From positions 62,001 to 126,000 of the forward strand of contig NZ_LXNG01000011.1 in NCBI RefSeq assembly GCF_001642575.1: 64,000 bases of DNA. The letters are read 5' to 3'. This DNA is from Xanthomonas floridensis. Lineage in GTDB: Bacteria; Pseudomonadota; Gammaproteobacteria; Xanthomonadales; Xanthomonadaceae. Every line of letters starts with the position of its first letter. Within the stretch, counting starts at the first letter, position 1. Below the pieces are notes generated by a model. That model did not search any database. It saw only the letters and a program-made list of their open reading frames with translations, and was not told the origin of the DNA. The translations under genes were made by a program, and so were the position numbers. This document shows positions 7,481 through 35,367 of the stretch, piece after piece.

Positions 7481-7498
7481 ACCCGTCAAAATGTCTCA
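7481..7498 (-). promoter_or_regulatory. Shared T6SS upstream motif, tssK copy
   Basis: The minus strand reads TGAGACATTTTGACGGGT. It matches the copies before vgrG, PAAR and tssB at 14 or so of 18 positions and has the same orientation relative to the downstream T6SS gene, here tssK (start 164 bp further on). It is the most divergent copy (CA and GA changes in the middle). It could be an EcfK-dependent promoter element or an activator site. The rest of 7318-7601 shows nothing else recognisable. Confidence 0.6.
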
Positions 7499-7601
7499 GG
7501 CGGTCAACCGCGGCCTCAGCCATCGGTAGCATCTGGCAGGCCTGGGCAGAGGAAATTTTAGAATCCTCGCTGGTCTGCGGATTGGTCGCGGGGAGAGCGC
7601 C

Positions 7602-8416
7602 TTGATCCTGATCTACGCTGTCGAAAAACGGCCGGTCACCGAAGGCTGCGGCTTTGTCACCGACTTTTGCCTGATCTGCCGCGCCGCTCAGGCCTTCGAG
7701 GTGCAACGCGTGGGTCTGGCATGGTCGATGTCTGGCGTGCGCCTTGGCAAGACGACGTAGACGCATGACCATCAGCTGTGTCAGAGCTGCCAACAAGCAC
7801 TTCTGCATATACGCCATCGTGGTTTACGCATCGGTCGTCATCGCCTGACGCCATTGACCGGTTGATCGACATTACCCCGCCTGGTTTCGCCGCGCGCCAT
7901 GCGCATCGACTGAAGATCGAGGAGCAGAGTCGCGACGCGCCCGCGTCGCTGGATCCGTCGCAGCGAGCCGACTTCGTGCAGGCGCCCTTCGTCCTGTTGC
8001 ACCCCCATCTGGAGCAACGATTTGCAAGCACTCAGCTCGATTGGCGGCAGCTGATGGTGCTTGCGTGTGGCCTGCCGTGCATGCTGTTCCTGCTGCTCAC
8101 CGGGTTGCTGCTTGAGTACGTCGGCGTGCCCATTGCACAGACGGACCCATGGACCGCGTTTGCTGCCTTCATGGGCGATGTCGGGCTGGTGATGCTGGTA
8201 TTGGCACGTGTGCGCCAGCAGTTTTTCGAGCGCAGGGTTCTTCCAGAATTGGTCTTCACCCTGGCCCAGAACCGCACGGGCCCGCTGCGTCAGTGGCGTC
8301 GCCTCAACCCTGCGTGGCTGGACACGATTGCCCGATTGCCCGCACCAGCCAGGGGGCCTGTAGAAAGTCAGACAACGTCGGCCAACGATGATGTGCGCTG
8401 GCGACGTCCGGCCTGA
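7602..8416 (+). pseudogene. Decayed zinc-ribbon membrane protein gene
   Basis: Two frames together look like one protein. Starting at TTG 7602, the frame reads LILIYAVEKRPVTEGCGFV and continues through a CLIC cysteine pair until a TAG inside cgacgtag (about 7758). The same frame past the stop still carries CQSC, a second CxxC. The remainder lies in another frame, open from GTG 7778 to 8416, with a charged segment (LKIEEQSRDAP) and two membrane segments (QLMVLACGLPCMLFLLLTGL and AFMGDVGLVMLVL). A two-CxxC ribbon followed by two membrane helices is a common architecture of small bacterial membrane proteins. I therefore infer a frameshift plus a stop. Alternatively only the 212-residue frame 7778-8416 is expressed. 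The function is unknown. Confidence 0.5.
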
Positions 8417-8674
8417 TGGCTGCGGTCATCTGACCTGGGTGTGTGCCAGGTACGGTGAGGCGAGCGTGCCACTGTCGCATTGGCGATTGCGGCGATGTCC
8501 GTAGTCCGGGATTGAAAGGCGCTGCTGCTGGCAACCGCCACTGTGCTCCACGACACTCCCAATCCCTGCCGCCCGGCCCTGAAGCGTGTCTGCCGGGAGC
8601 GCCACCTTGGCGCGCCCGGCCTTTCCGCTTTTGCCGCCAAAGCTGCTGTTAGAGACACTGCACCCGGTTCGTGG

Positions 8675-9562
8675 TCAACGCGCAGTGCCGGTGGTGGCAA
8701 CAATGGCATCCAGCGTTGCAAGCTGGTCTGCGGACAGCTCCAGGTTGCAGGCGGCGAAATTCTCGGCCAGATGCGCCGGCGAGGATGTGCCGGCGATCAC
8801 CAGCAGATTGGGCGAGCGCTGCAGCAACCACGCCAGCGCCACCTGCCGGGGTGTGGCGCCCACCGCGCTGGCGACGCCGGAAAGTACGTCCGACTGTAGC
8901 GGCGAAAAACCGCCGAGCGGGAAGAACGGCACATAGGCGACGCCTTGCTGCGCGAGCGCGTCGATAAAGGCGTCGTCGTCGCGCTTGACCAGGTTGTAGT
9001 GGTTTTGCACGCACACGATCCTGGCCAGCGACTGCGCCTGCTCCAGCTGGCGCGCAGTGACATTGCTCAAGCCGATATGGCGTACCAGGCCTTCGCGCTG
9101 CAACTCGGCCAGGCAGGCCACCGGCTCGGCGATCGCGCTGTCGTCGGTGTCGGCCAGTGCGCCCAGCCGCAGGTTGACCACATCCAGCGCCTCGAGACCC
9201 AGGCTCGTCAGGTTGGCGTGCACCTGCTGCCGGAGGCTGTCCGGCGCCAGATCGCTATGCCAGGAACTGTCGCTGCCGCGGCGGATGCCGATCTTGGTGA
9301 CGATCACCACATCATCGCGGTAGGGATGCAGTGCTTGGCGAATGAGCGCATTGGAGACATGCGGGCCATAGAACTCGGCAGTGTCGAGATGGTTGGCGCC
9401 CAGTGCGACCGCCTGGCGCAGGACCGCCAGCGCAGAAGCCTTGTCGCGCGGCGGTCCCCACACATGGGAGCCGGGCAATTGCATGGTGCCGTAGCCCATG
9501 CGCTTGAGCTGCAGGGTGGTGCCGGGCAGGGTGAAGGTGCCACCGAGGTGAGTGTCGGTCAT
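8675..9562 (-). CDS. Aldo/keto reductase family oxidoreductase
   Basis: The product (295 residues) is a soluble NAD(P)H-dependent aldo/keto reductase with a TIM-barrel fold. The visible landmarks are MGYGTMQLPG at the N-terminus, the catalytic LDTAEFYGPH (Asp and Tyr), IVTKIG with the catalytic Lys, RHIGLSNVTA, and the C-terminal IAGTSSPAHLAEN NADP-binding segment. The start ATG 9562 gives the family length; an upstream in-frame extension to 9736 has no similarity to the family. It diverges from a LysR-type regulator at 9776 across 213 bp, an arrangement in which the regulator usually controls the reductase. The substrate cannot be told from the sequence. The pair separates two T6SS blocks and may be an unrelated insertion in the locus. 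Confidence 0.9.
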   Translation of the reverse strand: MTDTHLGGTFTLPGTTLQLKRMGYGTMQLPGSHVWGPPRDKASALAVLRQAVALGANHLDTAEFYGPHVSNALIRQALHPYRDDVVIVTKIGIRRGSDSSWHSDLAPDSLRQQVHANLTSLGLEALDVVNLRLGALADTDDSAIAEPVACLAELQREGLVRHIGLSNVTARQLEQAQSLARIVCVQNHYNLVKRDDDAFIDALAQQGVAYVPFFPLGGFSPLQSDVLSGVASAVGATPRQVALAWLLQRSPNLLVIAGTSSPAHLAENFAACNLELSADQLATLDAIVATTGTAR

Positions 9563-9775
9563 GAGATGTCCTTGGATGGGTGGGCGGAGCGGCGTCTGCG
9601 ATTGGGTGGGAGCGGCCGCTGCGGGCACGGCGCACACTCGTCGAAAACGCGCTGTGTGGTGTCGCGCCTGCGGCAAAAAAAACGCTTTACTTCGGTAGTG
9701 CCGCTGCAATTTACGGCCGCGACCTCTGTGCGACAATCAGGTATAAATTGAACGGGCCGTACGGATTTCCGAACA

Positions 9776-10678
9776 ATGAGCAATCGCCTGGGTGACATGG
9801 AGGCGTTCGTGCGGGTGGCGCGCGCCGGTGGATTTCGGGAAGCGGCCAAGAGCGCGGGCCAGAGCGCGTCCAACTTCAGCGATGCGATCAAGCGCATGGA
9901 GGCCTGGCTGGGCGTGCGGCTGTTCAATCGCACCACGCGCAGCGTGGTGCTGACCGATGCGGGGAAGGCGCTGTTGGCCCGCATCGAGCCGGCATTGATC
10001 GAGCTGGAGGGCGCCAAGGAGGTGGTCAGCGCGTTTCGCGACACGCCGGCCGGTACGCTGCGCCTCAATGTGCCGGTCAGTGCGGCGCGGCTGGTGTTGC
10101 CGCGCATCCTGCCGCCGTTCCTGGCGGCCTACCCGGACATCACCGTGGAGGTGCTGACCGAAGAGAGCTTCGTCGACGTGATCGCCGCCGGGTGCGATGC
10201 GGGAATCCGCTACGGCGAGCGGCTGCAGCAGGACATGGTGGCGATCCCGATCGGCCCGCGTGTGCAACGCAGCGCAACCGCTGCATCTCCCGGCTACCTG
10301 GATCGGCGCGGCCGCCCCACCCACCCGCGCGAGCTGATCGACCACGACTGCATCCGTGGTCGTTTTCCCAGCGGCGTGATTGCCGAGTGGGAGTTCGAGC
10401 GCAAGGGAGAGATCGTCACCATCCTTCCGCGTGGGCAGCTGCTGGTGGAGATCGGCGGAGGTCTCGATCTTGCGATTCAATCGGCAATCGCCGGAAACGG
10501 AGTCATTCACCTGTTTGAGCAATGGCTTGCGCCGCACCTGGCATCCGGTGCGCTCGAACCGGTGCTGCGCCCCTGGTGGCAACCGTTTCCCGGCCCCTAT
10601 CTGTATTACCCCAACCGCAACCTCACCCCGCCTGCGCTGCGCGCGTTCATTGAATTCGTCAAACAGTTGCCCGACTGA
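9776..10678 (+). CDS. LysR-type transcriptional regulator
   Basis: This is a standard-length LysR-type regulator (300 residues). The N-terminal winged helix covers about residues 5-65 (GGFREAAKSAGQSASNFSDAI, then LGVRLFNRTTRSVVLTDAG). An effector-binding domain of two alpha/beta lobes starts near residue 90 (TLRLNVPVSAARLVLPRILP). The sub-type resembles the CrgA-like group, often paired with oxidoreductases. It is transcribed away from the aldo/keto reductase gene 8675-9562 and very likely regulates it from the 213-bp shared region. There is no sign of a link to T6SS other than location. Confidence 0.92.
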   Translation: MSNRLGDMEAFVRVARAGGFREAAKSAGQSASNFSDAIKRMEAWLGVRLFNRTTRSVVLTDAGKALLARIEPALIELEGAKEVVSAFRDTPAGTLRLNVPVSAARLVLPRILPPFLAAYPDITVEVLTEESFVDVIAAGCDAGIRYGERLQQDMVAIPIGPRVQRSATAASPGYLDRRGRPTHPRELIDHDCIRGRFPSGVIAEWEFERKGEIVTILPRGQLLVEIGGGLDLAIQSAIAGNGVIHLFEQWLAPHLASGALEPVLRPWWQPFPGPYLYYPNRNLTPPALRAFIEFVKQLPD

Positions 10679-10708
10679 GAGCAGCTGACACAACGCCTGC
10701 GCGCCCCC

Positions 10709-10741
10709 CTGACGAACGCCCGCTACGGTTTGGTAGAAGCT
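10709..10741 (+). repeat. Dispersed 33-bp element, copy A
   Basis: The sequence CTGACGAACGCCCGCTACGG, followed by TTTGGTAGAAGCT, matches copy B (20177-20209) at 27 of 33 positions and copy C (57689-57721) at about 23 of 33. It lies in the 100-bp convergent gap between the LysR gene and the FHA gene. No coding role is visible. Confidence 0.55.
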
Positions 10742-10778
10742 CTCAGCCTTGCGCCCCTGCGGTCGCAACGCGGCCGGA

Positions 10779-12110
10779 TCACCCTTGCGATCCGCGCGCG
10801 GCAGGCTGGCGCCGTGCCGACTTCAGGCGTGCCAGCTGCGCCTCGTAGGCGCGGGCGAACTCGTCGCCGAACAGGCGGCGGAAGCAGTCGTCCGGATCGC
10901 CGCGCAGTTGTTCGAAGTTGTCGCGATAGCGCTCCCAGTATCGCCCTTTGCCGCCGAAGCTCAAGCGCTTGCCACCGGCGTCGGCCTCCTGTTCCAGCCG
11001 GTCCGGGCTGAAGTGGAACAGCATCGCGTCGAAGGCCGCGCGCATACCGGCCAGCATCGCCATCTGGTGGCAACGGATATCGTCGAAGGCATCCTCGAAT
11101 GCCGGCACGCCGGACAGGAACGCGGGGCTGGGCGGGGCCAGCAGTTTCTGCAGGGCATCGTCGGCGGTGGCAGCGAACTTGAGCGGGTTGTTCTCCGACC
11201 GCTGGATCACCGTGACCGGCAGGCGGAAGGTGTTCTTGATCTCCGCACGTGCGCGCAGTACGTCCATCACGCCATCCACCACGATGGCGAAGATGCGATC
11301 CAGCTCCGGTGGCAGCTGCAGCGTTGGTGCAGGCGCGTTGCCAGGCGGTGCCTGGGCCGCGAAGGCCGGAGCGGGAGCGGCCTGCACTGCGCGCGCTGCA
11401 GTGGTGGCGGGCTGCGCAAAATCGCCCAGGGTCATGTCCCAGTTTTTCGGCAGCGTGGCGCGTGCATCGCCACCGGCCGGCGGGCGGAAGTGGTCGTGAC
11501 TGGCGCTGCTGTGATTCCACGCGCCGGGCACCACGCTGGGCGCCGGGGCGGGTACCGGGTCGAGCAGGCGTAGGGGATCCAGCTCACGCGGCGAGCTGCC
11601 CGCCAGCAGGCCTTCCAGCGGATCGTCGATTGCCGGGCGCGTGGCCACCGGCGCCCCGAAGTCCAGCAGATCCAGGCGGCTGTCGGGCGATGCAGTGCGC
11701 GCCGGCGACGGTGGCGGCGCGACCTGGGTGCGGTCGTCCATCGCATCGGATAGCGCATCGAACGCCGGCGGTGCGTCGGGCGTGGCCGCCAGCGCGTGCA
11801 CCTGCACCTGGATCTCGAAGCTGTCCAGCTGCAGGCGGTCGCCATCGCTCAGGGCGCACGGGTCGGCGCGGGTCAAGGCCGCACCATTGAGCGACATGCC
11901 GTTGGTGCTGCGATCCTCGATGAAGTACATGCCGTTGAGAAAACGCACCACCGCATGCGTGCGCGACACCCCCGGCGCTGCCAATACCCAATCGCTCTCG
12001 TCCGAGCGCCCGATGCTGCCGCCGCTGCCGGCGAACCGCTTCTGCGCATTGGGCCCGAACTGCGCGGCATGCGCGCCGCCAACGGTGAGGATCAACTGCG
12101 AACTGGACAC
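10779..12110 (-). CDS. tagH: T6SS FHA-domain protein (TagH/Fha-like)
   Basis: The first 100 residues of this 443-residue protein form an FHA phosphopeptide-binding domain, with the conserved GR (SIGRSDESDW), SRTHAVVRF and STNGMSLNG elements. A proline/alanine-rich linker (about 110-260) follows. The C-terminal domain (LDRIFAIVVDGVMDVLRARAEIKNTF...) is the one found in type VI FHA proteins and ends in a basic tail. Fha proteins recruit T6SS assembly when a threonine kinase phosphorylates a partner; the phosphatase PppA at 1-635 would oppose this. The start is GTG 12110, chosen because an AGGAG ribosome site lies about 8 nt upstream. A 274-bp gap separates it from the DUF6931-like gene; no terminator is evident there, so it may share the vgrG transcript. 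Confidence 0.88.
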   Translation of the reverse strand: MSSSQLILTVGGAHAAQFGPNAQKRFAGSGGSIGRSDESDWVLAAPGVSRTHAVVRFLNGMYFIEDRSTNGMSLNGAALTRADPCALSDGDRLQLDSFEIQVQVHALAATPDAPPAFDALSDAMDDRTQVAPPPSPARTASPDSRLDLLDFGAPVATRPAIDDPLEGLLAGSSPRELDPLRLLDPVPAPAPSVVPGAWNHSSASHDHFRPPAGGDARATLPKNWDMTLGDFAQPATTAARAVQAAPAPAFAAQAPPGNAPAPTLQLPPELDRIFAIVVDGVMDVLRARAEIKNTFRLPVTVIQRSENNPLKFAATADDALQKLLAPPSPAFLSGVPAFEDAFDDIRCHQMAMLAGMRAAFDAMLFHFSPDRLEQEADAGGKRLSFGGKGRYWERYRDNFEQLRGDPDDCFRRLFGDEFARAYEAQLARLKSARRQPAARGSQG

Positions 12111-12384
12111 GACACAGGCTCCTGCAGACAAGAAACGACGCCGGAAAAAGGCGCCATGCAACCGACGCGCAGGCGCCGGCGATAACCAACAGACATGACC
12201 ACCACGCGGGCGACCTCGCCCTCGCACAGACGCGCAGCGCTGCATGCGGCGCTGCTGGCAACCCGGAGGCGCACGCCTCGTGCCGCGCGTGACGGATGCA
12301 CGCGCCCCATCCCTGCAGCGCCCCGCCAGCGCACCAGTGGCGCACCGATCCCGGTGCGAGCTCCAACGCGGTCGCGCAGCACGC

Positions 12385-12933
12385 TCATGGGGGCTGCACG
12401 TTGGCCAGCAGCTCCAGCGCGTGCGCGGCATAACCGCTGCGACGCGCGGCCAGTGCGGCAGGCTGGCGCGCAGCGAGCAAGGTGATGGCCGCCGCGACCG
12501 CACGTGCGGTCAGGTGCTCGGCCGGCGGGACCGCAGTGCTCTGCTGGGGCGGCGCCAGGCTGCCACCGGACCAGGCCACCGCCGCTGCCAGCCATGCGCC
12601 CAGGGAAATGTAACCACCGGCATGCGCAAACGCCTGCGCCGCGCGGCGATGCGTTTCGCTGGGGTCGCGCACCCACTTTTCCGCCAGCGCAGCACCGGCG
12701 CGGTCTTCCTCGTCCAGCGCTTCGCCGCGCACGCACTGGCACAGCCAGGCCACCGCGTAGCGCTTGGGCAGCAGGCGCGCGAGCAGCTTGATCGCATCCT
12801 CGTCGTGGCCATGCGCCAGCAAGGCGCGTACCGCCGCCTGCGGCGCGATCGGCGTGGCCAGCTGCGCACGCGCCGGCGCGGAGACCTGCATGTCCGCACA
12901 CGCCTGCGCCAGCGAGAGCATGGGCGCGCTCAT
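12385..12933 (-). CDS. DUF6931-like protein linked to VgrG
   Basis: The product is 182 residues, cytoplasmic-looking, and rich in alanine and helix-forming residues. It begins MSAPMLSLAQACADMQVSA, and its body (AVRALLAHGHDEDAIKLLARLLPKRYAVAWL) resembles the DUF6931 family found beside T6SS genes. The resemblance is from memory and not tested. The start overlaps the vgrG stop by 4 bp (ATGA), a strong sign of co-translation, so a role in handling VgrG or the spike is plausible. A hydrophobic stretch (SLGAWLAAAVAWSGG) is too weak to call a membrane helix. The function is unknown. Confidence 0.75.
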   Translation of the reverse strand: MSAPMLSLAQACADMQVSAPARAQLATPIAPQAAVRALLAHGHDEDAIKLLARLLPKRYAVAWLCQCVRGEALDEEDRAGAALAEKWVRDPSETHRRAAQAFAHAGGYISLGAWLAAAVAWSGGSLAPPQQSTAVPPAEHLTARAVAAAITLLAARQPAALAARRSGYAAHALELLANVQPP

Positions 12934-14894
12934 CCGATCATGATCAGGCCGCCACCGACCTGCACCAGGGCATCGGCCTTGATGCTGACCAGCGGGCCCT
13001 TGAGCGTGGCCGAGGCGCCGGCTTCGGCGCTGAGCATGCCGCCGGAGGACAACTTCAGCGTGCCATCGCCGGCGACCTCCGTGGCCGGCGATTTGGCCTG
13101 CAACTGCGCATTGGCGATCAGCTTGATGGCGGTGGAGGTGGTCTTGGCCTCGGAGCTTGCATCGATCAGGATCTTGACCCCGCTGAGCACGATGTCGCCG
13201 TTTTGCTTCATCACCAGCCGCGCACTGCCAGTCACCAGCTCGATCTCTTCGCCGGCCTGCAGCAGCAGTTTCTTGCCGACATCCACGCTGTCGTTGTTGT
13301 CGATGCGCGCCTTGCGGTCGTGCTTGACCGTGAGCACCTGATCGTTGTCCACGGTGGCGGTGTGATCGTGCTGCACCGCTTCGCACAGGTCGCGCTGTGC
13401 GCGCAGATAGACCTCTTCCGCGCCGGCCTTGTCGTCGAAGCGCAGCTCGTTGAAATCCGCGCTGCCGCCCAACAGGCTGCGGCTACGCACGCCACTTTGG
13501 GTCTTGTTGTCCGGCAGCGCGAACGGCAGCGCGTGATCGGCGTTGTAGACGCTGCCCACGATCAGCGGGCGGTCCGGATTGCCTTCCAGGAAGCTCACCA
13601 CCACCTCCTGCCCCACCCGCGGCAGGCTCATCGCGCCCCAGCCCTTGCCCGCCCACATCGAGGCCACCCGCACCCAGCACGACGGTGCGCCATGCGCGCG
13701 TGCGGCGCCGGCCCAGTGAAAGGTGACCTGCACACGGCCGTGCGCGTCCACCACGATGTCTTCGTCGGTATCGCCGGTCACCACCGCGGTCTGCAGGCCG
13801 GCAATGCTGGGCATGGGCGTGCGCGCCACGCTGCGAAACGGCAACCGGCTTTCCATCACCTGCACGGTGCTGGAAAACGGCGGCTCGTCGGCATGCTCGG
13901 GCGCTGCCAGCGTGGTCTGCGCCGAAAGCACCAGATACTCCTGATTGAGCTCGCTGCGCGGGTGGCTGCGCAGGGTGAACAACGCCCCCACCATCAGCCC
14001 GCAGGCATTGGTGGTGGCCTGGTGGCTGGCGCGCTGCACGTTGTGCGCCTCGGTGCGGACTTGCACATAGCGGCCGCCATCGGCCTGCAGCACATGCGGG
14101 CCGGGGTAGTCGAACGCGGCCAGGCCATCCACCGGATGCAGGCCGGCACCGCTGGCGTCGCACTCGGCCGCCAGAGAGGCGCGTGGCTGCTGCGGGTCGT
14201 AATCGGTGACGGCATGCTGGGTGGAATGCAGCGCGCGGGCGGCACGCCACTGGCTCACCACCGAGCGCAGGATGCGCCGGTTTTCCAGTTCCGGCGGCAC
14301 GTACGGCAGGCTGTCCACGCCGTTGCGCTGCGCATGCGCCCCTAGCGCGTCGCACAGCACCATGGTGTGCGCACTGCGGCCATGGGTGAAGTAGTAATAG
14401 ATGCCTTCCTGCTCCAGCAGCCGGCTGATGAAGCTGAAATCGTCTTCGCGGTATTGCACGCAGTACGTGCGCTTGGAGTACTGCGTGCTCAATTGCTGCT
14501 GCACATCGCTGTAGCCGATCTCGCCCAGCACGCTGACGACGATCTCCGGCACGCTCAGGTCCTGATAGATGCGGCAATCGCGCCGTTGGGTGAGCAGCCA
14601 GGGCCGCGGCACCAGGTGCAGTTCCAGCACCGTGTAGGCGATCGCATCGACAACGCTGACGCCAGCCTGCGCGCAGCTAGCCACGATGCCGTGGTACCAC
14701 CGTTGCTCGCCGTTGTCGTCGGCCAGTTGGACAGCCACCGGCGTGGCGAGCAACGCGCCCAGGTTGGGTTGTGCATCCGTGCACAGGGCATCGATGCGGT
14801 AGTCGAACAGCTGCCCCAAGGCCTCGTGCGCCTGCATGCGCTGCAGCCGCAGGCGGTCGCCAAGGTCGGAGTGCAGCGTGATGGTGCGCGGCAT
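12930..14894 (-). CDS. vgrG: T6SS spike protein VgrG (TssI)
   Basis: VgrG forms the trimeric needle tip on the Hcp tube. The first 380 residues (of 654) are the gp27-like hub (REDDFSFISRLLEQEGIYYY is diagnostic), followed by the gp5-like OB fold (VDAHGRVQVTFHW, WVRVASMWAGKGWGAMSLP, GQEVVVSFLEGNPDRP) and a C-terminal beta-helix with repeated DN/KHDR units. It ends in VQVGGGLIMIG with no added effector domain, so cargo must bind through PAAR or adaptors. ATG 14894 (MPRTITLHSDLGDRL) was chosen; an in-frame ATG at 14984 would add 30 residues not typical of VgrG. The shared TGAGAC motif lies upstream at 15030-15047. Confidence 0.95.
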   Translation of the reverse strand: MPRTITLHSDLGDRLRLQRMQAHEALGQLFDYRIDALCTDAQPNLGALLATPVAVQLADDNGEQRWYHGIVASCAQAGVSVVDAIAYTVLELHLVPRPWLLTQRRDCRIYQDLSVPEIVVSVLGEIGYSDVQQQLSTQYSKRTYCVQYREDDFSFISRLLEQEGIYYYFTHGRSAHTMVLCDALGAHAQRNGVDSLPYVPPELENRRILRSVVSQWRAARALHSTQHAVTDYDPQQPRASLAAECDASGAGLHPVDGLAAFDYPGPHVLQADGGRYVQVRTEAHNVQRASHQATTNACGLMVGALFTLRSHPRSELNQEYLVLSAQTTLAAPEHADEPPFSSTVQVMESRLPFRSVARTPMPSIAGLQTAVVTGDTDEDIVVDAHGRVQVTFHWAGAARAHGAPSCWVRVASMWAGKGWGAMSLPRVGQEVVVSFLEGNPDRPLIVGSVYNADHALPFALPDNKTQSGVRSRSLLGGSADFNELRFDDKAGAEEVYLRAQRDLCEAVQHDHTATVDNDQVLTVKHDRKARIDNNDSVDVGKKLLLQAGEEIELVTGSARLVMKQNGDIVLSGVKILIDASSEAKTTSTAIKLIANAQLQAKSPATEVAGDGTLKLSSGGMLSAEAGASATLKGPLVSIKADALVQVGGGLIMIG

Positions 14895-15029
14895 CGAAGC
14901 ATCCACAGGTGGGTAGGCAACGCAGGGTGCGCCGGCCGGCAGTGCGGAATCGCCGGCCTGCGCGTACCGTCGCATGCCGGTCACGGGCCATCACTGCCAG
15001 GGCGATGCTCACATGCAGGCAGTGGGCAA

Positions 15030-15047
15030 AGCCGACATTTCGTCTCA
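15030..15047 (-). promoter_or_regulatory. Shared T6SS upstream motif, vgrG copy
   Basis: The minus strand reads TGAGACGAAATGTCGGCT, preceded by CGCAGTGC. The PAAR copy is preceded by the nearly identical CGCAGCGC. The site overlaps the stop codon of the upstream TPR-methyltransferase gene and lies 136 bp before the chosen vgrG start (46 bp before the alternative start 14984). Its position at the gene junction suggests a new transcript begins for vgrG. Confidence 0.65.
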
Positions 15048-16376: not shown

Positions 16377-16591
16377 CGGGGCTCTCCTAGGGGCGGCAAG
16401 ATGACGACGGAGCGACTGCAGTGCGGGTGCGGGCTCGACGATGCGCGTGGTGACCGGTCAGTGCGTACTGCGCGCCAGCGTTGCGCCTGTTGCAGGCGCA
16501 GTGCCCCCGCGGCATCGCAACCATGGCCATGGCTGTGGCCTGGACGTACGCCGGGAACGTGCAGCAACCGTCCCACGCGCGGCGGCGGCGC

Positions 16592-16879
16592 TCAGCCGAT
16601 CAGTACGGTGAAGCACCCCAGGGTGATCACTCCGCCATGTGCGGTGCTGTCGCCCAGGCGTGCGGCCGGCTGGCCGGCGATCAACACGGTGGGCGCACCG
16701 GCCACGATGCTGTCCGGCGGGCCCACACACACCGCCGCATCGCCGATGCGTGCGGCAGGCAGGCCACCGATCAGCACCGTGGGCGCACCGGGGCCGAGGA
16801 TGGGACCGCCCACGTGCGGCACCACTCCGGTCACCATCGGGCAGACGTGCAGGTCGGTCAGGCGTGCGGCGGGTTGCAT
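16592..16879 (-). CDS. PAAR-domain T6SS spike-tip protein
   Basis: This 95-residue protein is almost entirely a PAAR domain: MQPAARLTDLHVCP, then two related blocks each ending in GAPTVLIxGxPAARxGD (residues 31-48 and 61-78), and HGGVITLGCFTVLIG at the end. PAAR proteins cap the VgrG trimer with a zinc-bound cone and carry effectors. There is no N- or C-terminal extension, so it is a plain tip rather than a specialised effector. The 56 bp between its ATG and the shared TGAGAC motif (16935-16952) are consistent with its own promoter. A 215-bp gap with no evident feature separates it from the TPR-methyltransferase. Confidence 0.93.
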   Translation of the reverse strand: MQPAARLTDLHVCPMVTGVVPHVGGPILGPGAPTVLIGGLPAARIGDAAVCVGPPDSIVAGAPTVLIAGQPAARLGDSTAHGGVITLGCFTVLIG

Positions 16880-16934
16880 GGCAACGCTTCGATGCAATCG
16901 GTGGCGGGCACTGTGCCGCGCCTGTTCACCGCTG

Positions 16935-16952
16935 ACCCGGCAATTCGTCTCA
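16935..16952 (-). promoter_or_regulatory. Shared T6SS upstream motif, PAAR copy
   Basis: The minus strand reads TGAGACGAATTGCCGGGT, preceded by CGCAGCGC. It overlaps the pknS stop codon (16950-16952) and lies 56 bp upstream of the PAAR start. The block GACGAATTGCC is close to an inverted repeat (GAC..N5..GTC in the vgrG and tssB copies), so an activator dimer site is as possible as a sigma-factor element. Confidence 0.65.
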
Positions 16953-19457
16953 GCGCTGCGCCACCACCGAGGTGCTCGCTGCGTCGGCATCGGCGGGCGT
17001 CGGCGTTGCCGGTTGCACCTGCGCCAGGGTCTGCCGTGCGGCGCGCAACGGTTCCTCGGCGTTGCCGAAGATGCCGGTGAGGATCTGTACCGCCTGCTGC
17101 GCATGCGCGCGTGCGTCGGCTGTCTGGCCCAGGGTGCGCTCGGCTTCGGACATGCCGCGCAGGATCTCGGCGGTCTGCGGGTGCGCACGGCCCAGCACCC
17201 GCAGCGAGGCCGTCAGCGCGGCGCGCTGTTCGGCCAGCGACTGCGCTGCCTGCCCGGCATCCAGCAACCAGAACGCGTGGTTGCTGCGGAAGGTGATCGT
17301 CTCAGGCGCGTCTTCGCCAAACGTGCGGCGTGCCCGCTCCAACGCCGCCCGGTAATGCGGGCCGGCCTCGGCCACCTTGCCCTGTTGTCGCAATGCGCCG
17401 GCCAGGTTGCCTTCCACCATCAGCGTGTCGGCGGCGTTGTCGCCATAGAGCTTGCGGTGGATCTGCAGCAGCGGCGTCAGCTCGGCCTCTGCGCCGGCGA
17501 AATCGCGCTGCATCAGCAGATACACCGACAGGCTGTTGCGCATCGACAGAACGAACGGATGCTCGGGCCCGTCCAGGGCGATGCGGTCGCGCAGCAGGGC
17601 GCGCTGCAGGGTGATCGCCGGCGCCAGTTGCCCGACCTCGGCCAGCATGGCGGCGTAGACGTTGCCGGCGTTGATGCGCTGGCCCGCACGCGTGGCGGGG
17701 TTGGCCAGCGCCGCCACGTAGGCATGCCGGCTCTCGGTCATGGCCTCGGCGATGCGGCCCTGGTCGCGCAGCGTCCAGGCCAGCCACCCGCGCATGTCGT
17801 TGGCCATGGCCTGCTGCTGCGCGTCGCCGCGCTGCGCTTGCGCGATGCCCTGGCGCAGCAGCTGCGCCGCTTCCCCGCGCTTGCCGGCACCACGCAGCGC
17901 CTGGCCCAGCATGGAGGTGGCCTTCAGCGCCGGCAGGCTGCCCTCGCCCGCGCTCTCCCGCGCCAGCCGCTGCGCGGTGCGCAGGTGCTCCACCGCCTGC
18001 GGATACTTGGCCAGCGCAATCAAGGTACGGCCCAGTGTCAGTTCGACATCGGTGCGTGCGTCGGGCTGGCCGGCCAGCTCGCGCGCCGCACGCTGCGAGG
18101 CCTGCTCCAGCACGCGCAGCATCAGCGTCTTGTCCAGATCCTGCGCCACGCCCGGGTCCACGCTGGACAGTACCGAACTCATGAAGTCGCCGGTGACCCG
18201 TGCGCGTTGTGCATCGCGCGCAGCCTGCTGCAGCGACCACAGCGTGGCGCCCACGCCGCCGATCGAGGCCACGGTCACCAGCCCGCCGGCCAGCACACCG
18301 CTGCGATGGCGCTGGGTGAACTTGCGCAGCCGCAACCAGCGGCCGGCCTGCAGGGCGCGCGGCGGGTAGCCGTCGAGCCAGCGGTGCAGATCGTCCAGCA
18401 GCGCCGACACCGACGCATAGCGTGCACCCGGTTCGGGTGCCAGGGCGCGCAGCACGATCGCATCCAGGCCATCGCGCAGCTGCTGCAGCAACTGCACAGG
18501 GGCGGTGGCGCGCGCGGCGCAGATGCGTGCGCGCGCATCGGCCGGCACCGCAGCCACCCGTTGCGAAGGTGGCTGCGGCACGCCATCGCTGCCGGCCACC
18601 GGCGCCAGCCCGCAACTCAACTCGTAGAACATCGCGCCCAGCGCATAGATGTCGCTGCGTGCGTCCACCTCCTGCGCGCCGCGTGCCTGCTCCGGGCTCA
18701 TGTAGCCGGGCGTGCCGCGGCCGTGCGCCGAGGTCAGCCCCGGGTTGGCCGCATCGATGGCGATGCCGAAATCGATCACCCCCGGCATCGGCCGCCCGTC
18801 GATGTCGCTGACCAGCACATTGCTGGGCTTGAGATCGCGATGGATCACGCCCTTCTGGTGTGCATGCTGCACCGCCTCGCTCACCCGCAGCATCAGCAGC
18901 ACGCGTGCGTGCAACGACAGCCGGTGCTCGTCGCACCACCAGGTGATGGGCTCGCCGCGCAGGTACTCCATCACCAGGTACGGCCGGCCCTGGGCGTCGG
19001 TGCCCACATCGTGGATCTGCGCGATGGCCGGGTGCACCATCTGCGCGAGCAGCCGGCATTCGAATTCGAACAAGGCGCGGCCCTGCGCATCCAGCGCGTC
19101 GGCGGCCACCAGCTTGATCGCTACCTCGCGCTCGTAGGCACCATCGGCGCGGTGCCCCAGGTACACCTGGCCCATGCCGCCGGCACCGAGCAGGCGGTCG
19201 ATCGCCCACGCGCCGAAGCGCGTACCCGCCGGCAGCTCAGGCAGTGGCGCGTGCAACGCGGCTACGGCCTGTTTCAACGGCGCGCGTATCCGCAAGGTGG
19301 CCTGCGATTCCACCGCCAGCATCGCCAGCAATTCATCGCGCAACACGGCATCGTCGCCGGCCTGCACGCGCGCGAACGCGTCGCGCTCTGCGGGCGGCAA
19401 CAGGCAGGCCTGGTGAAACAAGGCCTCCAGCCGTTGCCAGGTGGTGGCCACGCTCAC
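16950..19457 (-). CDS. pknS: Transmembrane Ser/Thr protein kinase PknS with TPR-like C-terminus
   Basis: This 835-residue protein has a Hanks-type kinase domain at about 80-370: glycine loop GAGGMGQV (91-98), catalytic Lys115 in VAIKLV, HRDLKPSN (206-213) and DFG (229-231). All catalytic residues are present, so it should be active. One membrane helix lies at about 387-408 (GVLAGGLVTVASIGGVG). The C-terminal 420 residues are helical TPR-type repeats, predicted periplasmic. In Xanthomonas citri the equivalent kinase PknS activates the sigma factor EcfK and thereby the T6SS. The start overlaps the ecfK stop by 4 bp, confirming the pair. An N-terminal helical segment (1-75) precedes the kinase, as is common for ECF-linked kinases. 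Confidence 0.92.
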   Translation of the reverse strand: MSVATTWQRLEALFHQACLLPPAERDAFARVQAGDDAVLRDELLAMLAVESQATLRIRAPLKQAVAALHAPLPELPAGTRFGAWAIDRLLGAGGMGQVYLGHRADGAYEREVAIKLVAADALDAQGRALFEFECRLLAQMVHPAIAQIHDVGTDAQGRPYLVMEYLRGEPITWWCDEHRLSLHARVLLMLRVSEAVQHAHQKGVIHRDLKPSNVLVSDIDGRPMPGVIDFGIAIDAANPGLTSAHGRGTPGYMSPEQARGAQEVDARSDIYALGAMFYELSCGLAPVAGSDGVPQPPSQRVAAVPADARARICAARATAPVQLLQQLRDGLDAIVLRALAPEPGARYASVSALLDDLHRWLDGYPPRALQAGRWLRLRKFTQRHRSGVLAGGLVTVASIGGVGATLWSLQQAARDAQRARVTGDFMSSVLSSVDPGVAQDLDKTLMLRVLEQASQRAARELAGQPDARTDVELTLGRTLIALAKYPQAVEHLRTAQRLARESAGEGSLPALKATSMLGQALRGAGKRGEAAQLLRQGIAQAQRGDAQQQAMANDMRGWLAWTLRDQGRIAEAMTESRHAYVAALANPATRAGQRINAGNVYAAMLAEVGQLAPAITLQRALLRDRIALDGPEHPFVLSMRNSLSVYLLMQRDFAGAEAELTPLLQIHRKLYGDNAADTLMVEGNLAGALRQQGKVAEAGPHYRAALERARRTFGEDAPETITFRSNHAFWLLDAGQAAQSLAEQRAALTASLRVLGRAHPQTAEILRGMSEAERTLGQTADARAHAQQAVQILTGIFGNAEEPLRAARQTLAQVQPATPTPADADAASTSVVAQR

Positions 19458-25204: not shown

Positions 25205-25277
25205 GACAGCACCTCGGTATTGAAGACCACAAATCCTGCAGCCACAGCCACATATTCTCAAAATTTAATCGCAATTT

Positions 25278-28064: not shown

Positions 28065-28131
28065 GATGCGTCCTTCGAAGTCGGTACGTTGCGTGTGAGC
28101 GTGTGTGTGAGCGGCAATGGCAGCGGTGCGG

Positions 28132-31019: not shown

Positions 31020-31020
31020 C

Positions 31021-31524: not shown

Positions 31525-31530
31525 GGTGGC

Positions 31531-32325
31531 TCAGCCCAGGTCCAACTGCAGGTGGCGCACGTCCAGCAACGCCAGCTCACGCGACTCGGTACTCCACATG
31601 CGCTGGCCCAGGCCGATCTCGCCCTGCGCGCCCTGTGTCCATTCCGTACGGCGCGCCAGCTGCAGCTCGCCGGTATCTAGATGCTCGCTGCCCGGATACC
31701 GCACTGGCATGTACGCAAACGCCTGGCCGCCATTGCGCCACAGCACGCTCACCGGCGCCCACACGGTGTCGCGCAGGTCCGCCGGTGCTTCGAAGCGCAG
31801 CTGATGGATCTGTTGCAACGGTGCCCAGGCATAGCCGCTGTCGAGCATCAGTTCGATACAAGGCCCGAAGCGCGCATCGGCATCGGACAGCCATTCAAAG
31901 CGTTCGCCATCCAGCACGCCCGCGCTTGCCGGTGCCAGTTCGAAGGCGTGGGCACGCAGCGCGTTTGCCTGCGCGCCATGGCCTTGTGCAGACAGGCGCA
32001 GCGCCTGCAGATGCAGTGCCAGCCACTCGGCCGGCTCGCCGATCACGTGCGGCAACTGGGCGCCGGCGAACACCTGCGCCCGTGTCTGCTCGCCCTGCAG
32101 TACCGCGAGATACGTCTGCACCAATGGCTGGGTGGTTCCATCCAGCTCCCCGCAGGCACGCAACTGGTCGGCCGCACGCGACCATTGGCCCAGCACGGCC
32201 AGCAGCTGAAACAGGAACACGCGCTGCGCAGCATCGGCAGGTTGCCGGCGTACCTGCTGCACCAGCTGCTGCAATGCCTGCGCCGGCTCGCCACGGGCAA
32301 GCAGGCTGTGTGCGGTGGCATCCAT
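31531..32325 (-). CDS. tagJ: T6SS accessory protein TagJ (ImpE/SciE family)
   Basis: This 264-residue protein is of the ImpE/SciE type. The helical N-terminal half contains LLARGEPAQALQQLVQQVRR and AQRVFLFQLLAVLGQW, and the C-terminal half has the family's FGPCIELMLDSGYAWAPLQQ and RDTVWAPVSVLW blocks. TagJ binds the TssB N-terminus in some systems and helps ClpV-driven sheath recycling. ATG 32325 was chosen because it gives the family N-terminus; the open frame continues upstream to 32463 with no similarity. A 208-bp gap to hcp has no obvious terminator. Confidence 0.93.
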   Translation of the reverse strand: MDATAHSLLARGEPAQALQQLVQQVRRQPADAAQRVFLFQLLAVLGQWSRAADQLRACGELDGTTQPLVQTYLAVLQGEQTRAQVFAGAQLPHVIGEPAEWLALHLQALRLSAQGHGAQANALRAHAFELAPASAGVLDGERFEWLSDADARFGPCIELMLDSGYAWAPLQQIHQLRFEAPADLRDTVWAPVSVLWRNGGQAFAYMPVRYPGSEHLDTGELQLARRTEWTQGAQGEIGLGQRMWSTESRELALLDVRHLQLDLG

Positions 32326-32533
32326 CGCGCATGTCCTCATCGAAGAAGGGAGCGGTGTCGCTGTCGACACCGCCGGTGATTGCATTAGAGGCATCGGGCG
32401 CAGCAGCACACCCACGCGCGCGCGGCTGCCGCAGGGCCGCAGGCGGTGCGATGCAACCGGCATGGACGCATGGCGCGTGCCGATCTCCCATCCGCCCCGC
32501 CATCCGGCGATCGCACGCGGTTTGCGTGACGCG

Positions 32534-33037
32534 TTATGCCTTGGCGACGCCCTGGATGTCGTAGGTGAATTCCTTCGCCCCGCCCTGCGCCGTGCCCTTG
32601 TCGTCCTGCGGCTGGAAGCCGTACTTGAACTTGCCGAAGTGCAGCGTCACGTTCTCGGTGAGGCGATCTTCGCCGCCGGAGCCGCCGGTGGACAGCGAAG
32701 TGATCAACACGCCTTCGCTCAGCTCGATCGTGAGAAAGTCGCTCTGCTCGCCGGTGGCATTGGTGACGTACAGCCAGGCGTTTTCCACGCGTGCACCGGT
32801 GCACACTGCATCGAGCAAGGCGTTGGAGCAGCCGTCCACGTACTTGGTGATGGAGATGTCCTGGATATGCGCCTTGCCGCCGCTGGCCGAGCCGCCACCG
32901 GTGTGCAGGTCGCCGGAATTGCTCGCGCCCCACGACCACGCCAGGATCGGAATCTCGCCCTTGTGCTTCTTGTGGTTGGACGCGCCTTCGATCTTGACCT
33001 TGCCGCTGCCGAACTTGATGTGCATGTCGAACGCCAT
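32534..33037 (-). CDS. hcp: T6SS tube protein Hcp (TssD)
   Basis: Hcp (167 residues) forms hexameric rings that stack into the secreted inner tube. Typical parts are MAFDMHIKFG at the start, HKGEIPILAWSWGASNSG, ITKYVDGCSNALLDAVC and VTLHFGKFKYGFQPQDD. The length is normal, with no fused effector domain, so this is a structural Hcp. A GGAGC ribosome site (reverse of gctcc) lies just upstream of ATG 33037. It stands between tssC and tagJ with 81 bp before it, so independent regulation is possible though no promoter motif is evident. Confidence 0.97.
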   Translation of the reverse strand: MAFDMHIKFGSGKVKIEGASNHKKHKGEIPILAWSWGASNSGDLHTGGGSASGGKAHIQDISITKYVDGCSNALLDAVCTGARVENAWLYVTNATGEQSDFLTIELSEGVLITSLSTGGSGGEDRLTENVTLHFGKFKYGFQPQDDKGTAQGGAKEFTYDIQGVAKA

Positions 33038-33118
33038 GGAACTGCTCCTTCAATGAAAGTGACAACAGGGGTGGCGCAACGCGCAGTGGCGTCGTGCCCG
33101 TGACGCGAATGCGTCGGA

Positions 33119-34612
33119 TCAGGCCTTGGCGGCCGAGGGCAAGCGCGAGACCAGGCGCAACGACACGGTCAGGCCTTCGAGCTGGTAATGCGGCTTGAGG
33201 AAGAACTTGGAGCTGTAATAGCCCGGCGCGCCTTCCACTTCCTCCACCACCACTTCGGCAGCGGCCAGCGGCTTGCGTGCCTTGGTTTCTTCGCTGGAGT
33301 TGGACGGGTCGCCATCGATGTACTGGGTCACCCAACGCGTCAGCCAGCCCTGCATCTGTTCGCGATCGGAGAACGAACCGATCTTGTCGCGCACGATGCA
33401 CTTGAGGTAATGCGCAAAGCGGCAGCAGGCGAACATGTAGGGCAGACGCGCGCCCAGCGCGGCGTTGGCGGTGGCATCCGGGTCGTCGTATTCGTCGGGC
33501 TTGTTCAAGGACTGCGCGCTGATGAAGGCGGCCATGTCCGAATTCTTGCGATGTACCAGCGGCATCAGGCCCATCTTGTCCAGCTCGGCCGAGCGGCGGT
33601 CGGTGATCGCCACTTCGGTCGGGCACTTCATGTCCACGCCACCGTCGTCGGTAGGGAAGGTGTGCGTGGGCAGGCCTTCCACCGCGCCGCCGGATTCGAT
33701 ACCGCGAATGCGCGAGCACCAGCCATATTGCTTGAACGAACGGTTGATGTTCACCGCCATCGCATAGGCCGCGTTCTGCCAGGTGTATTTGCTGGAATCG
33801 GCGCCGGTGGTCTCTTCTTCGAAATCGAACTCGTCCACCGGGCTGGTGGCTGCGCCGTACGGCAGGCGCGAGAGCGTGCGCGGCATCGCCAGACCGATGT
33901 ACTTGGCGTCTTCCGACTCGCGCAGCGAGCGCCATGCGGCGTAATCGGGCGTGGAGAAGATCTTGGCCAGATCGCGCGGGTTGGACAGCTCGTTCCAGTT
34001 GTCCATGCCCATCAGTTTGGGCGCGGCTGCGGCAATGAAGGGGGCATGCGCAGCGGCGGCCACCTGTGCGATGCCGTTGAGCAATTCCACATCCGGCGGG
34101 CTCTGGTCGAAGTAATAATCGCCGACCAGGCAGCCATACGGCTCGCCACCGAGCTGGCCGTATTCCTGCTCGTAGACCTTCTTGAAGATCGGGCTCTGGT
34201 CCCAGGCGGTGCCCTTGTAGCGCTTGAGCACCTTGCCCAGTTCCTTCTTGCTGATGTTCAGCACGCGGATCTTGAGCTGCTGGTCGGTCTCGGTGTTGTT
34301 GACCAGGTAATGCAGGCCGCGCCAGGCGCCTTCGAGCTGCTGCAGATCGGGGTGATGCAGGATCTGGTTGAGCTGTTCGGTGAGCGTGCGGTCGATCTGC
34401 GCGATATACGCCTTGATGGTCTGCGAGACGTCTTCGCTGACCACGTCGCTGCGCGCAAGCACCTGCTCGGCCAACGTACGGACCGCCGATTCCACTTCTT
34501 CCTTGGCGCGTTCGCTCTTGGGGCGGAACTCGCGATTGAGCAGCGCGGCAAAATCGCCCTGCTCGGCTGTTTCGGTGCTGCTGCTGGCCAGTGCGGCTTC
34601 GGTGGCGGACAT
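33119..34612 (-). CDS. tssC: T6SS sheath protein TssC (VipB)
   Basis: TssC (497 residues) is the large sheath subunit. Diagnostic stretches include LEGAWRGLHYLVNNTETDQQ, PYGCLVGDYYF, HAPFIAAAAPKLMGMDNW, DLAKIFSTPDYAAWRSLRES, YIGLAMPRTLSRLPYG and AHYLKCIVRDKIGSF. ATG 34612 lies 4 bp after the tssB stop, as expected for the coupled pair; the frame stays open upstream inside tssB. It forms heterodimers with TssB that contract to push the Hcp tube. Confidence 0.97.
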   Translation of the reverse strand: MSATEAALASSSTETAEQGDFAALLNREFRPKSERAKEEVESAVRTLAEQVLARSDVVSEDVSQTIKAYIAQIDRTLTEQLNQILHHPDLQQLEGAWRGLHYLVNNTETDQQLKIRVLNISKKELGKVLKRYKGTAWDQSPIFKKVYEQEYGQLGGEPYGCLVGDYYFDQSPPDVELLNGIAQVAAAAHAPFIAAAAPKLMGMDNWNELSNPRDLAKIFSTPDYAAWRSLRESEDAKYIGLAMPRTLSRLPYGAATSPVDEFDFEEETTGADSSKYTWQNAAYAMAVNINRSFKQYGWCSRIRGIESGGAVEGLPTHTFPTDDGGVDMKCPTEVAITDRRSAELDKMGLMPLVHRKNSDMAAFISAQSLNKPDEYDDPDATANAALGARLPYMFACCRFAHYLKCIVRDKIGSFSDREQMQGWLTRWVTQYIDGDPSNSSEETKARKPLAAAEVVVEEVEGAPGYYSSKFFLKPHYQLEGLTVSLRLVSRLPSAAKA

Positions 34613-34616
34613 GGCG

Positions 34617-35126
34617 TCAGGCTCCTTCCGGTTCGGAGGCGGGTTTGGCCGCCGACACCAGCGACTGCAGCAACGCCGGGTCGCGAATGGCATTGGCGAT
34701 CAACTGCTCCGCGCCGGCCTTGCCGTCCATATAGGTGTCCAGGTTGGCCAGCTGGGTGCGTGCTTCCAGCAACTTGGCCAGCGGCGCGACCTTGCGCGCG
34801 ATGGCGGCCGGCGAAAAATCGTCCATGCTTTCAAAGGTGATATCCACCGCCAGCTCGCCTTCGCCGGTGAGCGTGTTGGGCACCTTGAACTGCGCACGCG
34901 GGCGCATCGACTGCAGGCGGCTGTCGAAGTTGTCGACATCGATCTCCAGTGCCTTGCGCTCGTCCAGCGATGGCAGCTCACCCGCGTTGGCGCCGGACAG
35001 GTCCGACATCACGCCCATCACGAACGGAATCTGCACCTTCTTCTGCGCACCGTAGACCTCGACGTCGTATTCGATCTGCACGCGTGGCGCCCTGTTGCGG
35101 GCGATGAACTTCTGACTGCTGGCCAT
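34617..35126 (-). CDS. tssB: T6SS sheath protein TssB (VipA)
   Basis: TssB (169 residues) is the small sheath subunit. The characteristic parts are SSQKFIARNRAPRVQIEYDV, KVQIPFVMGVMSDLSG, RKALEIDVDNFDSRL and LAVDITFESMDDFSPAAIA. It is the first gene of the sheath/baseplate operon running to clpV and probably into the cargo genes. A shared TGAGAC motif lies 224-241 bp upstream (35350-35367) in the region divergent from an AraC-type regulator. Confidence 0.97.
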   Translation of the reverse strand: MASSQKFIARNRAPRVQIEYDVEVYGAQKKVQIPFVMGVMSDLSGANAGELPSLDERKALEIDVDNFDSRLQSMRPRAQFKVPNTLTGEGELAVDITFESMDDFSPAAIARKVAPLAKLLEARTQLANLDTYMDGKAGAEQLIANAIRDPALLQSLVSAAKPASEPEGA

Positions 35127-35307
35127 GCCTGATCTCCGATTGAGCTTGCCCGTTGCGCCACCGTGCTCGGCACGGGCGCTGCCTTGTGGCTTGGATGTCG
35201 CCGGCCCGGCGGATGGCCTGCAGCCTGCGTGCGACGCCGGTGTTGCGGGCCATCCCGCAACTGCCGCGCACCACGCGGACCGAAGCGGCAGACCGTGCGA
35301 TGACGCT

Positions 35308-35321
35308 TTCTCAGCGCTGCG
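35308..35321 (-). promoter_or_regulatory. Half-copy of the shared T6SS motif before tssB
   Basis: The minus strand reads CGCAGCGCTGAGAA, equal to the first 13 bases of the extended PAAR copy (CGCAGCGCTGAGA), but without the CGAATTG part. It lies about 29 bp downstream of the full motif at 35350-35367. It could be a second weak site or a coincidence. Confidence 0.35.
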
Positions 35322-35349
35322 GCGAGTCTAGGAATGGCGCCAAATGCCC

Positions 35350-35367
35350 ACCCGACAAATCGTCTCA
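35350..35367 (-). promoter_or_regulatory. Shared T6SS upstream motif, tssB copy
   Basis: The minus strand reads TGAGACGATTTGTCGGGT. This copy equals the consensus at every fixed position. It sits in the 357-bp divergent region between tssB and the AraC-type regulator, 224 bp before the tssB start. Apart from this motif and its half-copy I see no other signal in the region. Confidence 0.65.

What the first reader, a model, noticed from the sequence alone, without database searches (positions are those of the whole stretch)
7481..35367. An 18-bp motif precedes four T6SS transcription units in the same orientation
Minus-strand copies: 7481-7498 TGAGACATTTTGACGGGT (tssK), 15030-15047 TGAGACGAAATGTCGGCT (vgrG), 16935-16952 TGAGACGAATTGCCGGGT (PAAR) and 35350-35367 TGAGACGATTTGTCGGGT (tssB). 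They share TGAGAC and most of the GAWTTGTCGGGT tail. All lie 56-224 bp upstream of a T6SS operon and none was seen before ecfK, the ThuA-like gene or the czc, gal and housekeeping genes. The copies at the pknS/PAAR and methyltransferase/vgrG junctions overlap stop codons, as if promoters had been inserted in a gene row. This defines a candidate T6SS regulon signal, for EcfK or for the adjacent AraC-type regulator.
Basis: partly seen in the sequence, partly recalled or inferred. Interest (0 to 1): 0.9.

Follow-up and report, generated by a model that had tools for sequence, protein, structure and literature searches.

The report
Activator box of a secretion-system regulon
Four promoters of a bacterial type VI secretion system share an 18-base site that, judged by which genes it travels with across species, most likely belongs to an AraC-type activator encoded next door rather than to the neighbouring sigma factor, and in related species the same site also precedes genes outside the secretion system.

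Summary
In detail: the four 18-mers are where stated (0.03 expected), and the 5.25-Mb genome has only six matches at up to three mismatches, four of them these.

Comparative data favour the AraC-type gene (35484-36077, divergent from tssB; presumably TagK). Five genomes with a 60-75% identical AraC homologue and no EcfK orthologue found carry boxes at the same T6SS junctions; four with EcfK and PknS but no AraC match have none at two mismatches or better. More distant T6SS clusters with this AraC also carry boxes.

A second element, A-N3-T, follows at fixed spacing in 25 of 29 site classes (mean 8% at other offsets). The box would lie at about -49 to -32 before a sigma70-like -10, as for SoxS/MarA class II activators.

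In relatives the box precedes non-T6SS genes, including a small predicted-secreted protein (20 of 21 genomes), also in species without this T6SS. TagK's role in the X. citri T6SS is published (title seen only), so the motif may be in print. Nothing here is experimental.

The parts
35350..35367 (-). Box 1 (tssB promoter): TGAGACGATTTGTCGGGT
35325..35330 (-). -10-like hexamer TAGACT of the tssB promoter (predicted)
   Evidence: fixed-spacing analysis
16935..16952 (-). Box 2 (PAAR promoter): TGAGACGAATTGCCGGGT; its TGA is the stop codon of pknS
16910..16915 (-). -10-like hexamer CACAGT of the PAAR promoter (predicted)
15030..15047 (-). Box 3 (vgrG promoter): TGAGACGAAATGTCGGCT; its TGA is the stop codon of the TPR-methyltransferase gene
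15005..15010 (-). -10-like hexamer GAGCAT of the vgrG promoter (predicted)
7481..7498 (-). Box 4 (tssK promoter): TGAGACATTTTGACGGGT
7456..7461 (-). -10-like hexamer CAGAAT of the tssK promoter (predicted)
35484..36077 (+). AraC-type regulator (197 aa, HTH_18; presumably TagK), proposed reader of the box
   Evidence: Pfam; co-occurrence; profile match to SoxS, RamA, MarA and Rob
35411..35440 (+). Conserved GTGATGG-N17-CGGTTG element upstream of tagK (candidate tagK promoter)
35452..35469 (+). Conserved GGCCC/GGGCC inverted repeat just before the tagK start
   Evidence: no Rfam family at its gathering score
34617..35126 (-). tssB (first gene of target unit 1)
16592..16879 (-). PAAR gene (target unit 2)
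12930..14894 (-). vgrG (target unit 3)
5983..7317 (-). tssK (target unit 4)
   Evidence: Pfam Sigma70_ECF
16950..19457 (-). pknS, Ser/Thr kinase
   Evidence: Pfam Pkinase

Best explanation
The 18-mer is the operator of the AraC-type activator encoded divergently from tssB (presumably TagK). One monomer's two helix-turn-helix units would read the two blocks (TGAGAC and TGTCGGGT, one helical turn apart) of an asymmetric site that overlaps the -35 region of promoters with a sigma70-like -10 (A-N3-T), as SoxS and MarA do at class II promoters. This would switch on four T6SS transcription units together and, in relatives, unlinked genes. PknS and EcfK most likely act one step upstream, for example by raising tagK expression, as an exchangeable input. 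Shown here by computation: the sites, their rarity, the fixed-spacing second element, conservation of the AraC DNA-binding domain, and co-occurrence with the AraC gene rather than EcfK. Inferred: binding, activation, use of the housekeeping sigma factor, and the EcfK-to-tagK step.
For: Rarity: 6 genome matches, 4 of them here, control 0; 134 matches against 3 for the reversed pattern TGAGACNNNNNGNCGGGT over 35 genus genomes (summed by hand). Association in the genus: a site with at most one mismatch in 28 of 28 EcfK+ genomes (all with an AraC match) and 1 of 7 EcfK- genomes. Separation of factors: AraC homologue (60-75%) without EcfK orthologue found, boxes present in 5 of 5 (G164, G213, G272, G300, G062: 5, 3, 4, 4 and 3 sites at two mismatches or better); EcfK+PknS without AraC match, no such site in 4 of 4 (G256, G245, G120, G145). 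Boxes with AraC homologues of 50-63% identity at T6SS promoters of Stenotrophomonas, Luteimonas and another family of the order. Four fetched stretches (8-20 kb) of a second Xanthomonas T6SS type (TssB 73-74%) have no box (L183-L186). Of the three window regulators used as queries (AraC, LysR, EcfK) only AraC was found in the T6SS stretches of these five genomes. A-N3-T at 38-40 in 25 of 29 site classes (tssB class in 16 of 17 members) against 8% mean and 24% maximum at other offsets, and in 16 of 18 out-of-genus sites against 8% at random positions. S52-R53-A54-x-L56-Y57-R58 and S101-E102-R103-Q104-F105-Q106-R107 invariant in 16 aligned homologues (one search shows P for A54 in Luteimonas and S. 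mori); profile matches to SoxS, RamA, MarA and Rob among 13 distinct sequences of solved structures.
Against: No binding, footprint or transcription-start data. Within the genus EcfK and the AraC gene co-occur, so the separation rests on 9 genomes plus the distant clusters. In the family searches only the 10 best first-look candidates per genome were scored, the lists of genomes without a match were cut, and G120 and G145 are 85% complete, so an absence there is not certain. The five EcfK-less genomes still hold a remote ECF-kinase pair (39-44% identity), which may contribute. Two order-level genomes with AraC homologues (G504 57%, beside an EcfK-like gene of 52%; G419 45%) show no box at two mismatches or better in the 37-40 kb fetched, where no T6SS genes were found either; G543 and G546 have none before PAAR; an X. 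cucurbitae paralogue (55%) has none at three mismatches in 5.2 kb. Homologues of 38-44% (G087, G261) come without boxes. G005 keeps one site with neither gene. The structure prediction did not finish, so the two-HTH reading rests on sequence.
Confidence: 0.85

Rival explanations
1. EcfK-RNA polymerase recognises the box directly, with TGAGAC or TGTCGGGT as the -35 element of an ECF43 promoter.
For: ecfK lies in the same cluster; EcfK and PknS are required for T6SS activation in X. citri (passages of PMC6653060; Discussion of PMC13147305); in the genus every EcfK+ genome has boxes; TGAGAC resembles -35 elements of some ECF promoters (recalled).
Against: EcfK+PknS without AraC match: no site at two mismatches or better in 4 of 4 genomes; boxes without an EcfK orthologue found in 5 of 5. 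The 18 conserved bases in two blocks, ending 19 bases before the hexamer, exceed a single sigma region-4 site (inference). In G029 ecfK and pknS are broken while the AraC gene and its box remain.
Confidence: 0.07
2. Composite promoters: the AraC-type protein binds TGAGAC and EcfK (or another ECF in EcfK-less species) contacts TGTCGGGT and the -10.
For: Both genes co-occur in 28 of 35 genus genomes; the EcfK-less box-bearing genomes still have a distant ECF/kinase pair (L178-L182).
Against: The hexamer A-N3-T matches the sigma70 hallmark positions -11 and -7 (recalled knowledge) and is the same in EcfK-less species.
Confidence: 0.07
3. Operator of some other regulator (for example the LysR-type gene at 9776-10678) that merely travels with the cluster.
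For: A LysR-type gene lies in the cluster. A weak LysR match (33%) lies near the G506 cluster. Not every gene of the relatives' clusters was named.
Against: LysR not found in the T6SS stretches of G164, G213, G272, G300 and G062; of the three regulator queries only AraC is there.
Confidence: 0.01

Closest known systems
SoxS/MarA/Rob class II activation (AraC family)
   Same: Asymmetric site of about 18-20 bp in fixed orientation overlapping -35 with a sigma70-type -10 (site rules recalled); DNA-binding domain with profile matches to SoxS, RamA, MarA and Rob.
   Different: Different box sequence; the protein has extra residues on both sides of the domain; its proposed targets are secretion and predicted secreted genes; its input in Xanthomonas appears to be a kinase/ECF pair.
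TagK, AraC-type activator of the X. citri anti-eukaryotic T6SS (Lima et al. 2022, Mol Microbiol 118:552; title seen only, in the reference list of PMC11385963)
   Same: AraC-type factor said in the title to act in the signalling cascade that induces the T6SS.
   Different: The paper is not held, so identity with this gene is inferred and I cannot say whether its site was reported.
EcfK/PknS (ECF43) control of the T6SS
   Same: Both genes are in the window and expected to act on the same T6SS.
   Different: The box does not follow EcfK across species.

Membership tests
AraC/XylS class II activator operator | AraC-family DNA-binding domain encoded with the sites | tested here: met
   HTH_18 in Pfam; profile match to SoxS, RamA, MarA, Rob
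AraC/XylS class II activator operator | Asymmetric two-block site in fixed orientation at fixed distance from a -10, overlapping -35 | tested here: met
   the -35 overlap is inferred from spacing, no start site is mapped
AraC/XylS class II activator operator | Co-occurrence of regulator and site | tested here: met
   exceptions: G504 and G419 (AraC homologue, no box and no T6SS in the stretch fetched), X. cucurbitae paralogue, G005 (one site, neither gene)
AraC/XylS class II activator operator | Direct binding and activation | not testable with these tools
   needs gel shift, footprint, reporter
ECF43 (EcfK) promoter | Site present where the ECF orthologue is present | tested here: not met
   G256, G245, G120, G145: no site at two mismatches or better
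ECF43 (EcfK) promoter | Two short elements about 16-17 bp apart (recalled ECF rule) | tested here: not met
   conserved blocks at 1-6, 11-18 and 38-43; 19 bases between box end and hexamer
TagK regulon (published) | The AraC gene is TagK and the box is its published site | not testable with these tools
   paper not held; title seen only

The most novel reading that the evidence does not exclude
The AraC-type protein and its box are an old regulatory unit of Xanthomonadales T6SS, and EcfK/PknS is a later, exchangeable sensor input. The box also runs a T6SS-independent regulon (a small predicted-secreted protein, a patatin-like phospholipase, an Stv-adhesin-like protein and repeat proteins) that is kept in species lacking this T6SS, possibly as a second line of defence against protist predators.
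Probability: 0.5. Interest if true: 0.65.

Novelty: new member of a known kind. Interest (0 to 1): 0.5.

Why it matters
It turns a one-window motif into a defined operator with a likely reader, a -10 partner and predicted start sites, and separates two regulators that are inherited together in Xanthomonas. The box can then be used to list candidate response genes outside the T6SS, for example the predicted-secreted protein of about 190 residues found downstream of it in 20 of the 21 genus genomes that carry the gene.

Tried and rejected
EcfK as direct reader: rejected on co-occurrence. The 18-mer as a complete ECF -35/-10 pair: rejected, the blocks are only 4 bp apart. Dimeric palindrome (GAC-N5-GTC): the flanks TGA and GGGT are asymmetric and position 13 varies. 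LysR gene: not found in the T6SS stretches of the five EcfK-less genomes. Rfam on the tagK region: 5 matches up to E 10, all below the gathering score.

Sites not used. I did not fetch all 134 matches. The recurring TGAGACGCSATGACGGGT sites (present also in EcfK- genomes) were set aside as probable coding coincidence without being fetched. L049 and L052 were fetched for TGAGACAAATCGACGGGT, which fell below the two-mismatch cut. TGAGACGAAATGACGGGT in L048, L053 and L055 lies beside terminator-like sequence and was treated as chance. Dropped before the class counts: L004, L006, L048, L053, L055, the L076 site at 6155, and the L086 remnant. Site classes failing the A-N3-T test: L042, L056, L084 and L167:16861. 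The dropped L004 site does have A and T at 39 and 43 by my reading. The 18 sites were picked by hand; three of them (G062) are also among the 29 classes; its two misses are the vgrG sites of G543 and G546.

Alignment A1 used 16 of the 34 distinct AraC reads, chosen among those on the plus strand of their locus. The structure job was polled through and never finished; no fold search was run. On rechecking, the candidate cap of the family searches and the incomplete genomes were added as caveats and confidence was lowered from 0.87 to 0.85.
Full report
Observation. The four minus-strand 18-mers are exactly as described. Against 100 shuffles of the window 0.03 matches are expected. In the window's whole genome six places match at up to three mismatches and four are these; the reversed pattern gives none. 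The remaining two are at the stop codon of an NTP-transferase-like gene and inside a homoserine-dehydrogenase-like frame (named by eye). Pfam confirms the genes: TssK, VgrG, PAAR, TssB, a Ser/Thr kinase (PknS), an ECF sigma factor (EcfK), a TPR-methyltransferase, a ThuA-like protein, a LysR-type and an AraC-type regulator. The names EcfK and PknS follow the literature on X. citri.

Promoter anatomy. I fetched 80 stretches from genomes of the same genus and grouped sites with at most two mismatches to TGAGACGWWNTGTCGGGT by gene context. Counting each context once (19 classes; dropped rows are listed under Tried and rejected), conservation covers positions 1-18 and reappears at position 39 (A, 86%) and 43 (T, 70%). 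With sites of G164, G213, G272, G300 and G062 added (29 classes), A-N3-T starting at 38-40 occurs in 25 classes (in the tssB class in 16 of 17 members), against a mean of 8% and a maximum of 24% in other three-offset windows. Among 18 hand-picked out-of-genus sites, three of them also in the 29 classes, it occurs in 16, against 8% at random positions. In the window the hexamers are TAGACT, CACAGT, GAGCAT and CAGAAT. If these are -10 elements, the box spans about -49 to -32, the place of a class II activator rather than of an ECF -35 element; this step is inference.

Which factor, within the genus. In 35 genomes EcfK is found in 28 and the AraC-type gene in 29, among them all 28. The extra one, G033, is frame-shifted, and the G009 copy is split. 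A site with at most one mismatch is present in 28 of 28 EcfK+ genomes and in 1 of 7 EcfK- genomes (G005) (the listing was cut, so G030-G032 and G034 were read and G033). Fisher p is 4e-6 without correction for relatedness. This cannot separate the two regulators. In G029 ecfK and pknS are broken while the AraC gene and its box remain.

Which factor, in the family. One search searched EcfK and the AraC-type protein in 297 genomes each, scoring at most 10 candidates per genome. Their T6SS clusters carry boxes before tssB, PAAR, vgrG and tssK, except that G213 has none at two mismatches or better before vgrG. They keep a PknS (57%) without an EcfK hit beside it (the neighbouring frames were read in two of the four). 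All five genomes also have a remote ECF/kinase pair elsewhere. Conversely G256, G245, G120 and G145 have EcfK (49-59%) and PknS (45-49%), are not among the 23 AraC matches, and have no site with two mismatches or fewer (one, one, none and one at three mismatches). G120 and G145 are 85% complete. G040 and G261, of the same group as G164, lack the close AraC homologue and have sites only at three mismatches; G087 (44% homologue) has none.

Wider still. Luteimonas sp. BDR2-5 (AraC 53%) has a perfect box before tssB; X. bonasiae (71%), and a contig labelled Bacillus subtilis SK7B5 (63%) that is probably a contaminant, have near-perfect ones. One search covered 398 genomes of the order and found the AraC protein in 35; I fetched 13 of these loci with flanks (G415, G543, G546, G504, G419, G506, G545 and six of 41-47% identity). 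In another family, G415 has boxes at all four junctions, G543 at tssB, tssK and vgrG but not before PAAR, and G546 at tssK and vgrG but not before PAAR (its tssB was not fetched) (up to two mismatches to the relaxed consensus). G506 has one before tssB. No EcfK hit lies in the T6SS stretches of G415, G543, G546 and G506 that were fetched. Results against: G504 (57%, with an EcfK-like gene of 52% nearby) and G419 (45%) show no box at two mismatches or better in the stretches fetched, where no T6SS genes were found; the 55% paralogue of X. cucurbitae shows none in 5.2 kb. The six loci of 41-47% homologues and five Pseudovibrio loci (36-38%) have none at two mismatches or better. The four fetched stretches of the second Xanthomonas T6SS type (L183-L186, TssB 73-74%) have none.

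The protein. The AraC-type gene encodes 197 residues. Across 16 of 34 distinct homologue reads most positions of both predicted recognition segments are invariant; Luteimonas and S. mori, not in that alignment, differ at position 54 and elsewhere. A profile search of solved structures finds 13 distinct sequences; the best two are other AraC-type proteins, then SoxS, RamA, MarA and later Rob. A structure prediction was started and did not finish.

Regulon beyond the T6SS. A protein of about 190 residues with a signal-peptide-like start (by eye) and no Pfam family is encoded in 21 of 35 genus genomes, 22 copies. Matching positions by hand, a box lies 210-292 bases upstream of the matched stretch in 20 of 21 genomes (21 of 22 copies; the G014 box has two mismatches); the exception, G027, is truncated. 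The window's own genome lacks the gene. G020-G023, G004 and G029, without a TssB match, have a box between the AraC gene and a divergent patatin-like gene (Pfam run on one of the six). Other downstream genes encode repeat proteins with weak DnaJ-like, fascin or lectin matches and one Stv-adhesin-like protein. These are predictions from position only.

Upstream input. The region before tagK contains a conserved GTGATGG-N17-CGGTTG element and an inverted repeat, kept with changes in EcfK-less relatives; the exact element occurs once in the window's genome. It is a candidate for the EcfK step but is not shown to be one.

Literature. Of PMC13147305 I read passages and the Discussion; it holds neither the letters TGAGAC nor the words TagK or AraC. 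Of PMC6653060, PMC8999054, PMC8103513, PMC9048695, PMC7788950 and PMC11385963 I saw passages only; PMC7788950 notes an AraC-type factor in one T6SS type. Lima et al. 2022 on TagK is known to me by its title alone; it is not held. Of the other papers listed by searches I saw only the listings. I found no report of the motif in what I saw; that does not show it is unpublished.

Verdict. The feature is real, and it is most likely the operator of the AraC-type activator in class II position. The kind of system is known; the operator anatomy, its separation from EcfK and the extra targets may be new. Interest is moderate because TagK itself is published.

Noticed in passing
window 35411-35469: Very conserved element GTGATGG-N17-CGGTTG followed by a GGCCC/GGGCC inverted repeat just before tagK, kept with changes across genera; no Rfam match at gathering score.
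   Followed up: partly
L060:2118-2687 and relatives: Predicted-secreted protein of about 190 aa, no Pfam family, with a box upstream in 20 of 21 genus genomes that carry it (with 25, 27, 33).
   Followed up: partly
L068:4631-5668: Patatin-like phospholipase gene with a box, divergent from the AraC gene, in genomes without a TssB match.
   Followed up: partly
L004:1501-1518 (G000:C1:29230-29247): Fifth genomic site, overlapping the stop codon of an NTP-transferase-like gene, with A and T at positions 39 and 43; the same 18 letters occur in G011 and G013, context there not checked.
   Followed up: partly
L167, L169, L171, L174: Group with a PknS homologue (57%) in the T6SS cluster but no EcfK hit beside it.
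   Followed up: partly
L213 / L259: In Stenotrophomonas mori the AraC homologue lies divergent from ecfK-pknS, with a two-mismatch box about 0.5 kb upstream of ecfK.
   Followed up: no
L214: Contig labelled Bacillus subtilis SK7B5 carries a Xanthomonadales-like T6SS with the AraC homologue; probably a contaminant.
   Followed up: no
upstream of boxes in L008, L047, L068: ATCAC at the same distance (about 14-18 bases) upstream of the box in the tssB, secreted-protein and patatin classes; a possible second contact.
   Followed up: no
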